Below, in pieces: positions 24,483 through 26,584 of a DNA stretch of 64,000 nt (position 1 is the first letter of the stretch; every line of letters begins with the position of its first letter). This stretch comes from Candidatus Thioglobus sp. (GTDB taxonomy: Bacteria; Pseudomonadota; Gammaproteobacteria; PS1; Pseudothioglobaceae): assembly GCA_028345955.1 (NCBI GenBank), contig JAOMEO010000002.1:1-64000 (forward strand). The letters run 5' to 3'. The translations under genes and the position numbers were made by a program. Below the pieces are notes generated by a model. That model was not told the DNA's origin. It ran no database searches and saw nothing but the letters and a program-made list of their open reading frames with translations.

Positions 24483-24968
24483 CTATTTGAAATACTTGTC
24501 AATCTTAGGCAATATGACTAACTGACAGTAAGGTTGGTTAGGGTTATTATTATAGTAGTTTTGATGATAACTCTCAGCTGGATAAAAAACATCCAATGGG
24601 CTAATCTCAGTTACCGCATCTGGTATCGAGTTTATAACTGATACGGTTTGCTCTCTTTGATTTATATCAGTATAGAATACTGCTGAACGGTACTGAGTGC
24701 CTCTGTCAGAACCCTGTTGGTTAAGGCTCGTTGGATCGTGAGTCTCAACAAAGACCTCAAGTAAGTCAGCAAAAGAAATTTGTTGCTCATCAAATTCAAT
24801 TTTTAAAACTTCTGCGTGACCACTTAGGCCACTACATACCTCTTCATAGGTTGGATTTAGTGTCGACCCATTACAATACCCATTCGTCAATTCATTGACA
24901 CCATCAATGCGCTGAAATATAGCCTCTACACACCAAAAACATCCACCGGCAAAGTAAGCTGTTTGCAT
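24483..24968 (-). CDS. msrA: Peptide-methionine (S)-S-oxide reductase
   Basis: 161 aa; FAGGCFWCVEAIF, QGSDRGTQYRSAVF, YPAESYHQNYY. Confidence 0.95.
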   Translation of the reverse strand: MQTAYFAGGCFWCVEAIFQRIDGVNELTNGYCNGSTLNPTYEEVCSGLSGHAEVLKIEFDEQQISFADLLEVFVETHDPTSLNQQGSDRGTQYRSAVFYTDINQREQTVSVINSIPDAVTEISPLDVFYPAESYHQNYYNNNPNQPYCQLVILPKIDKYFK

Positions 24969-25006: not shown

Positions 25007-25105
25007 ATGATAGCAAAGGAAGTCATCAATGCTCTAAAAACCTTAGCAACTGAAGACCGTCGCAAAACTAACGAATGGATAAAGAAGAAAGATTTTTATA
25101 CCTAA
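25007..25105 (+). pseudogene. Possible N-terminal relic of a DNA alkylation repair (AlkD-like) gene
   Basis: Manual translation MIAKEVINALKTLATEDRRKTNEWIKKKDFYT then stop; weak similarity by eye only. Confidence 0.25.
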
Positions 25106-25291
25106 AAGGAAATTTTGATGAGAAACAAAGATAAAATAGAGAACGTTGTTACTTGTATGAAAAATAGTCACCTTTATGAAAGTATTTCTTATACTGTTAT
25201 CAGATTGGAGGATATCTGACAGAGAACACTGAAAACATATATATAGAGTGTTATTTTTATTTATTTACCCTTATCTTATATATATTATTAT

Positions 25292-25321
25292 TTGACATAT
25301 TTATTGATATTTAGGTAAAAT
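25292..25321 (+). promoter_or_regulatory. Sigma70-type promoter candidate (TTGACA-18-TAAAAT)
   Basis: Direct reading, upstream of 25358 ORF. Confidence 0.55.
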
Positions 25322-25323
25322 AA

Positions 25324-25350
25324 GTCACTATTTAGTCACAAAATTGTCAC
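25324..25350 (+). repeat. Three direct GTCAC repeats with exact 11-bp phasing
   Basis: GTCAC at 25324, 25335 and 25346. Confidence 0.85.
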
Positions 25351-25357
25351 AATCTTA

Positions 25358-26584
25358 ATGGCGAGTATATATAAAAGAGGGAAATATTGGCACCTACAAT
25401 GGAATGACCACAAAGGTAGACATAGAAAATCTCTAGGTAAGATTAGTAAAAAGGATGCTGAAGACTTATTAAAGAGAAAAGAATATGAACTGACTTATGT
25501 GCCTCTAATTCAAAACAATCCTGAAAAAGGAAATGTGCTTATAATTTCCCTATTGGCTATTTCAGTTATTGCCATAATGTGGCTTTTCACTCCCTTTCTC
25601 CCCTCCCTATTTCTGTCCTTGTTAATTTGTATTACAACTTATAGTGGATTCAATAAATTATCACAAAAACGCTCTTTAAAGCAAGCAGCAATGATTATGA
25701 CTTTGGGAGTAACAGTTCTTTTAATTTTACCACTGAGTTATGTAATGTTGATTAGTGGTATTGAGGTTAGTGTACTCATTAACAAAATACAGAATGACTT
25801 CCAAATCAGTGATATTAGAAGAATTCTAGATCAGACAATTACAGGACTTCCTTTTTCTGATTCAATGAGTGAATTTTTAGATAGTACTCTAAGAAACAAT
25901 ATAGAAGGCATTCTTATCACTATCAAAGACTTTGCTATTATGGTCCTTAAAAGTGTCGCCACTTTGTCAAGCCAATTTATCTTTTTTATTATCATTACGA
26001 TATTTTCTCTCTACTACTTCTACCTTGATGGTGAAACAATTATCAAAAAAATTAGATCAATATCGCCTCTAGATAGAGAACTCAACAACCTTCTCTTGAG
26101 GCAATTCTCTGGTTTGTCAGTGACACTAGTTGGTAGTGTCTTTTTAGTTTCTCTGATTCAGGGTGTCGTATTTTCTTTTGGTGTCATGATAATCGGTTTA
26201 CCTGTACTATTTTTTGGGGTTGCAATGGCCCTCGCTGGCTTTATTCCGGTATTGGGTGGATTATTTGTATGGTTGCCTTTATCACTTTATTTGTTCGCTA
26301 TAGGAGAGACAGCTAGTGCCTTTATCATTCTCTTCTTTGGTGCAATTTTGGCGGGAACATTGATTGATAATTTTTTGAGACCTGTGATAATTAAAAAACT
26401 CTCCAGTTCGATGAATCATCAAAGTGCGCTTAATCACACACTAATTACTGTACTTTCTACCCTTGCAGGCATCATACAATTTGGAATATTGGGTCTCTTT
26501 ATTGGACCAATCATTGCCGCCATGACAATTACAATTTTTGAGGTTTATCGTCTTCAATACAATAAACCTTATGAAAGCAATTAA
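25358..26584 (+). CDS. Chimeric ORF: tyrosine-integrase-like N-terminal arm domain fused to AI-2E family transporter
   Basis: 408 aa; MASIYKRGKYWHLQWNDHKGRHRKSLGKISKKDAEDLLKRKEYEL resembles integrase N-termini; remainder is a polytopic AI-2E/PerM-like permease. Confidence 0.7.
   Translation: MASIYKRGKYWHLQWNDHKGRHRKSLGKISKKDAEDLLKRKEYELTYVPLIQNNPEKGNVLIISLLAISVIAIMWLFTPFLPSLFLSLLICITTYSGFNKLSQKRSLKQAAMIMTLGVTVLLILPLSYVMLISGIEVSVLINKIQNDFQISDIRRILDQTITGLPFSDSMSEFLDSTLRNNIEGILITIKDFAIMVLKSVATLSSQFIFFIIITIFSLYYFYLDGETIIKKIRSISPLDRELNNLLLRQFSGLSVTLVGSVFLVSLIQGVVFSFGVMIIGLPVLFFGVAMALAGFIPVLGGLFVWLPLSLYLFAIGETASAFIILFFGAILAGTLIDNFLRPVIIKKLSSSMNHQSALNHTLITVLSTLAGIIQFGILGLFIGPIIAAMTITIFEVYRLQYNKPYESN

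What the first reader, a model, noticed from the sequence alone, without database searches (positions are those of the whole stretch)
25358..26584. Integrase N-terminus fused in frame to AI-2E-family permease
First ~45 aa (MASIYKRGKYWHLQWNDHKGRHRKSLGKISKKDAEDLLKRKEYEL) read like a tyrosine-recombinase arm-binding domain, then the ORF continues without a stop into a complete polytopic AI-2E/PerM-like transporter (from about VPLIQNNPEKGN). This looks like a deletion-generated chimera that put a permease under an integrase promoter, possibly with a cytosolic DNA-binding head. An internal GTG start could still produce plain permease.
Basis: partly seen in the sequence, partly recalled or inferred. 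Interest (0 to 1): 0.7.

Follow-up and report, generated by a model that had tools for sequence, protein, structure and literature searches.

The report
Integrase stub fused onto permease gene
A piece of a decayed mobile element (its promoter plus the first 47 codons of its integrase) has replaced the front end of a bacterial membrane-transporter gene, so a dead element's control region now appears to drive, and possibly adds a DNA-binding head to, a working host gene.

Summary
One open frame, 25358-26584 (408 aa), joins about 47 codons of a tyrosine-recombinase N-terminus to a nearly complete AI-2E/PerM permease. No perM relative found, close (up to 93% identical) or distant, carries the first 37 residues; integrases from phage contigs, a Phycisphaerales MAG and a same-family genome do, and the segment models confidently as a beta-beta-beta-alpha domain. 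Relatives show the ancestral order msrA / alkD-NIF3-perM. Here perM was split after about codon 7 by a ~290-bp remnant carrying a strong sigma-70-like promoter, three 11-bp-spaced GTCAC repeats and the integrase start. A second genome (G015) holds the same left junction; its promoter-to-codon-11 stretch differs at 2 of 99 bases, against 33 of 173 just upstream. The permease is under purifying selection (14 non-synonymous, 43 synonymous changes on this branch). Best reading: an integrative element entered the 5' end of perM and a later deletion fused the integrase stub in frame, so the integrase promoter replaced perM's own start. Whether the product is the chimera (ATG 25358) or a trimmed permease (internal GTG 25535, unique to this genome) is open. 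Close precedent: mutL rescue by the SpyCIM5 int pseudogene. New variant of a known kind.

The parts
24483..24968 (-). msrA, divergent neighbour that fixes the ancestral synteny
   Evidence: same neighbour in L003, L004, L017 and G054
25007..25116 (+). remnant of an alkD-like DNA alkylation repair gene (start joined to end, middle deleted)
   Evidence: intact in L003, L017 and G015, alignment
25117..25214 (+). remnant of a NIF3/YqfO-like gene; large internal deletion whose endpoints look the same in G015
25216..25236 (+). decayed original perM start: native ATGACACAGAACACC.. reads CTGACAGAGAACACTGAAAAC here; left edge of the insert
25237..25498 (+). left end of an integrative element (insert): promoter, repeats and integrase codons 1-47; further element or att-derived bases may run on to about 25528
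   Evidence: absent in L003, L004, L005, L017; first 154 bp present in G015
25292..25321 (+). sigma-70-like promoter TTGACA-18-TAAAAT
   Evidence: 11 of 12 consensus; unchanged in G015
25324..25350 (+). three GTCAC boxes at exact 11-bp spacing between the -10 box and the integrase ATG; candidate arm-type sites or operator
   Evidence: 0 expected by chance; only this genome and G015 of 83; parallel 11-bp array upstream of the G054 integrase
25358..25498 (+). integrase N-terminal domain, codons 1-47
   Evidence: predicted fold E2-7 E10-17 E20-27 H31-52, pLDDT 90-93 over residues 1-40
25493..25528 (+). junction stretch of uncertain origin (TYVPLIQNNPEK)
   Evidence: similarity to native perM codons 2-7 not significant (p 0.09-0.35; first 19 nt 0.7-0.85); similarity to the left copy weak (p=0.02)
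25526..25537 (+). AAAGGA plus in-frame GTG (codon 60) at 25535: candidate internal start giving plain permease
   Evidence: the aligned codon is GGC or GGT in all 14 relatives inspected
25529..26584 (+). perM (AI-2E family permease) from about native codon 9 to the stop
   Evidence: PF01594; 43 syn and 14 nonsyn changes on this branch, pairwise dN/dS about 0.07

Best explanation
An integrative element of the tyrosine-recombinase kind inserted into the 5' end of perM, after about codon 7, with its integrase gene at the left end reading towards perM (shown: left edge and orientation; inferred: site-specific entry). A deletion then removed the rest of the integrase and the element, joining integrase codon ~47 in frame to perM at about codon 9 (shown: the joint; inferred: a deletion made it). 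The original perM start decayed from ATG to CTG (shown). perM is now transcribed from the integrase promoter at 25292-25321 (inferred from consensus and conservation). Translation starts either at the integrase ATG, giving a permease with a 47-60-residue basic cytosolic head (my estimate 55%), or at GTG 25535 behind AAAGGA, giving an ordinary permease (35%); both may occur. The permease keeps working (inferred from purifying selection).
For: Close relatives carry perM with its own start and strong Shine-Dalgarno (-9.3 kcal/mol in L003, L004, L017) and no stub. The two halves of the native perM 5' end flank the insert. The stub aligns with the starts of full-length integrases and models as beta-beta-beta-alpha; its top viral fold match is an integrase (E=0.036, probability 1.00). 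G015 has the same left edge and what looks like the same NIF3 deletion; the TTGACA-to-codon-11 stretch differs at 2 of 99 bases against 33 of 173 in the stretch just upstream, 25117-25291 (Fisher p=1.7e-5), which points to constraint on it. Iterons lie between promoter and start, as in the related G054 integrase. perM is under purifying selection. Five of 17 residues changed only in this genome fall in the first 15 codons after the joint, as if the N-terminus were re-adapting.
Against: The right joint is seen in one draft genome only (81% complete, 41 contigs), without reads. No att-site duplication is proven. No intact copy of the parent element was found. The conserved stretch in G015 could also reflect a recently active integrase or exchange. 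In-frame joining alone has a one-in-three chance. Neither ATG 25358 nor GTG 25499 has a Shine-Dalgarno sequence, though first-ATG sites of long ORFs in the window also often lack one (median -1.5 kcal/mol).
Confidence: 0.72

Rival explanations
1. Only the promoter was captured: plain permease is made from the internal GTG at 25535, and the stub is merely leader RNA.
For: AAAGGA 3 nt before an in-frame GTG (-4.0 kcal/mol). All 14 relatives inspected have a glycine codon GGC or GGT there, so two base changes made the GTG, only in this genome. The product would start at the first membrane helix.
Against: The 3-nt spacing is short, and the site is no more open in the predicted mRNA than the ATG (0.36 against 0.45 unpaired). 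The stub is still an open frame with no stop, and its first 11 codons are unchanged in G015.
Confidence: 0.35
2. The right joint is an assembly error; in the cell the full element, or the integrase, lies between the stub and perM.
For: Draft genome. The sister genome G015 has an apparent misjoin in the same stub (to soxA, over an 8-nt overlap AATATTGG, with normal soxA at the contig end).
Against: The joint is in frame and perM follows without disturbance; the original perM start is mutated, as expected if it is no longer used; one copy in the assembly.
Confidence: 0.12
3. The chimera is a decaying pseudogene under no selection.
For: The neighbouring alkD and NIF3 genes are remnants.
Against: 43 synonymous against 14 non-synonymous changes on this branch, much like the sister genomes (19:6 and 33:6), and no frameshift or stop.
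Confidence: 0.07
4. The N-terminus is a normal feature of a subgroup of AI-2E permeases.
For: None found.
Against: None of the perM matches in the relatives, genus or phylum-wide searches begins before query residue 38.
Confidence: 0.01

Closest known systems
SpyCIM5 in Streptococcus pyogenes Manfredo (PMC3430984)
   Different: There the island remains, the int gene is frameshifted by a 128-bp deletion and no in-frame host fusion is described; here most of the element is gone and the int N-terminus is joined in frame to the host protein
Tyrosine-recombinase N-terminal (arm-binding type) domain
   Same: Sequence start MASIYKRGK..W, beta-beta-beta-alpha model, 11-bp repeats just upstream of the gene
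   Different: Core-binding and catalytic domains absent; attached to a membrane protein
AI-2E family transporter / PerM / YdiK (PF01594)
   Same: Whole permease domain from the first membrane helix to the C-terminus
   Different: Native start and first ~8 codons replaced
Related integrase at tRNA-Pro in G054 (L077)
   Same: 57-60% identical N-terminus, 11-bp iterons directly upstream, near the same msrA-moeB block
   Different: Sits at the tRNA-Pro 3' end and not in perM; itself frameshifted, with its C-terminal part fused to a Fic-like domain

Membership tests
AI-2E transporter (PF01594) | Profile match over the curated cut-off along the full domain | tested here: met
   109.6 bits against 34.3, residues 61-398, profile 2-327 of 327
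AI-2E transporter (PF01594) | Transport function | not testable with these tools
   needs an assay
Tyrosine recombinase (integrase) | N-terminal arm-binding type domain | tested here: met
   homology to the starts of intact integrases and fold; no Pfam match; Foldseek against PDB not significant
Tyrosine recombinase (integrase) | Catalytic domain | tested here: not met
   ORF continues into permease; PF01594 is its only Pfam match
Element integrated at the 5' end of a host gene (SpyCI-like) | Insert splits the host gene's first codons | tested here: met
   perM codons 1-7 left of the insert, codon ~9 onwards right of it
Element integrated at the 5' end of a host gene (SpyCI-like) | Direct att repeats at both edges | tested here: inconclusive
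   left against right similarity p=0.02; right flank against native perM p 0.09-0.35
Element integrated at the 5' end of a host gene (SpyCI-like) | Element promoter drives the host gene | not testable with these tools
   promoter consensus only; needs RNA 5'-end mapping

The most novel reading that the evidence does not exclude
The chimera is made, and its integrase-derived head still binds the three 11-bp-spaced GTCAC repeats that overlap its own transcription start, making the permease a membrane-anchored autoregulator of its own gene.
Probability: 0.06. Interest if true: 0.8.

Novelty: new variant of a known kind. Interest (0 to 1): 0.45.

Why it matters
It catches an intermediate step of mobile-element domestication: the element is nearly gone, but its promoter, putative operator and DNA-binding domain remain attached to a host gene under selection. 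It offers a testable case of a new protein head, and possibly a new start codon, arising from an integrase, with ancestral states preserved in close relatives.

Tried and rejected
Search for an intact parent integrase in viral contigs, genome contigs, phages, plasmids and the order: only distant relatives and the broken G054 copy. A weak DNA match in G018:C34 lies inside a coding gene and was set aside as chance. A clear att-site duplication could not be proven. G015's stub-to-soxA joint was considered as a second fusion and rejected as a probable assembly misjoin. Single-sequence folding of the whole protein was too poor to use (pLDDT 55). Foldseek of the head against PDB gave nothing significant.

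Full report
What is there. The open frame at 25358-26584 is real and uninterrupted. From residue 61 it is an AI-2E/PerM permease, with a full-length Pfam match far over the cut-off. The first 47 residues are something else. They have no Pfam or NCBIfam match and a weak PHROG match to integrase. A translated scan of viral and genome contigs finds them at the very start of integrases, with MASIYKRG and W11 kept throughout; three of the loci hold intact integrase frames of 333-355 residues. A same-family genome, G054, has a 57-60% identical integrase start. Modelled with these relatives, the segment is three strands and a helix at pLDDT 90-93 over residues 1-40. The best viral fold match is an integrase at probability 1.00, though its E-value is only 0.036, and nothing in PDB is significant.

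It is not a normal part of AI-2E proteins. In the nearest 40 genomes, in further genus members, and in 399 genomes across the phylum (98 with a match, this genome included), no other perM match starts before query residue 38. The closest, 93%, 91% and 83% identical, start at 57, 56 and 54.

What the locus looked like before. In G018, G008 and G054 the order is msrA (divergent), then alkD-like, NIF3-like and perM in one direction, with perM beginning MTQSTQNGHGNG or MTQNTQNGHGNG in G018 and G008 and MNTNTQKPFEHG in G054. In L003, L004 and L017 it sits behind a strong Shine-Dalgarno sequence. In the window alkD and NIF3 are shrunken remnants. The old perM start survives as CTGACAGAGAACACTGAAAAC at 25216-25236, the ATG changed to CTG, and is followed by foreign DNA; perM resumes at about native codon 9 near 25529. 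So perM was split by an insert of about 290 bp.

What the insert holds. In order: an AT-rich edge; a sigma-70-like promoter (TTGACA, 18 nt, TAAAAT); three GTCAC boxes at exact 11-bp spacing, a pattern not expected by chance and seen in only this genome and G015 of 83 in the order; then the integrase start. In G054 the related integrase is also preceded by an 11-bp array (TTAGCACACTT, ten perfect copies), lying between tRNA-Pro and the integrase ATG. Repeats directly before such an integrase are thus likely part of its att or control region (inference).

A second genome. G015 carries the same left junction and what looks like the same NIF3 deletion, so the insert is shared by descent or exchange and is not a slip of one assembly. 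Between the two genomes the NIF3 remnant differs at 25 of 97 bases and the insert edge at 7 of 54, but the stretch from TTGACA to integrase codon 11 at only 2 of 99 (Fisher p=1.7e-5 against the region upstream). That fits constraint on the promoter, repeats and start, either for the integrase while the element lived or for perM afterwards; the data do not separate these. By flanking DNA, G015 is no closer to the window than genomes that lack the insert, so loss in those or exchange between lineages must be allowed for. G015's contig then runs into soxA through an 8-nt overlap while the normal soxA end lies at the contig's other end. I take this as a misjoin, so what follows the stub in G015 is unknown; its assembly also lacks perM and the pheST side.

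Is the permease alive? On the branch leading to the window, perM has 43 synonymous and 14 non-synonymous changes, much like its sisters (19:6, 33:6); pairwise dN/dS is about 0.07. Part of that branch may predate the insertion. Five of the 17 residues changed only here lie in the first 15 codons after the joint, where under one is expected by length. One of these changes turns a conserved glycine codon (GGC or GGT in all 14 relatives inspected) into GTG, three bases after AAAGGA. It could be a newly made start codon, or drift in a tail that no longer matters.

How it most likely works. The integrase promoter transcribes perM. Translation from the integrase ATG would give a permease with a basic head (14 K/R, 7 D/E in 59 residues), expected on the cytosolic side; translation from GTG 25535 would give an essentially ordinary permease. 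I lean slightly to the first because that start region is perfectly conserved, but this is not shown. The closest published precedent is SpyCIM5, where a promoter within a broken int gene rescues mutL expression (PMC3430984); the in-frame protein fusion is what differs here.

Limits. Draft genome, no reads, no intact parent element, no proven att duplication, no expression data.

Noticed in passing
L077:7374-8964 (G054): Related integrase at the tRNA-Pro 3' end is frameshifted after 89 codons, and its C-terminal part runs in frame into a Fic-like domain (446-aa ORF; Fic call from reading the sequence, not searched): a second integrase chimera in the same family.
   Followed up: partly
L075:1377-1487 (G054): Ten perfect tandem copies of an 11-bp unit TTAGCACACTT directly before the integrase start; same period as the GTCAC boxes in the window.
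   Followed up: partly
L034:18600-18750 and end of L035 (G015:C4): Integrase stub joined to soxA antisense through an 8-nt overlap while normal soxA lies at the contig end; probable misassembly or inversion variant.
   Followed up: yes
L079 (G008), perM: perM is about 72% identical to the window while the flanking DNA is 91-93%: perM appears to have been replaced by recombination in that genome.
   Followed up: no
window 25007-25214 and relatives L004, L006, L007: alkD and NIF3-like genes between msrA and perM are eroded or deleted differently in several lineages; this gap looks deletion-prone in the genus.
   Followed up: partly
L020/L023 (G011:C55): perM appears broken into two overlapping frames in G011.
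   Followed up: no
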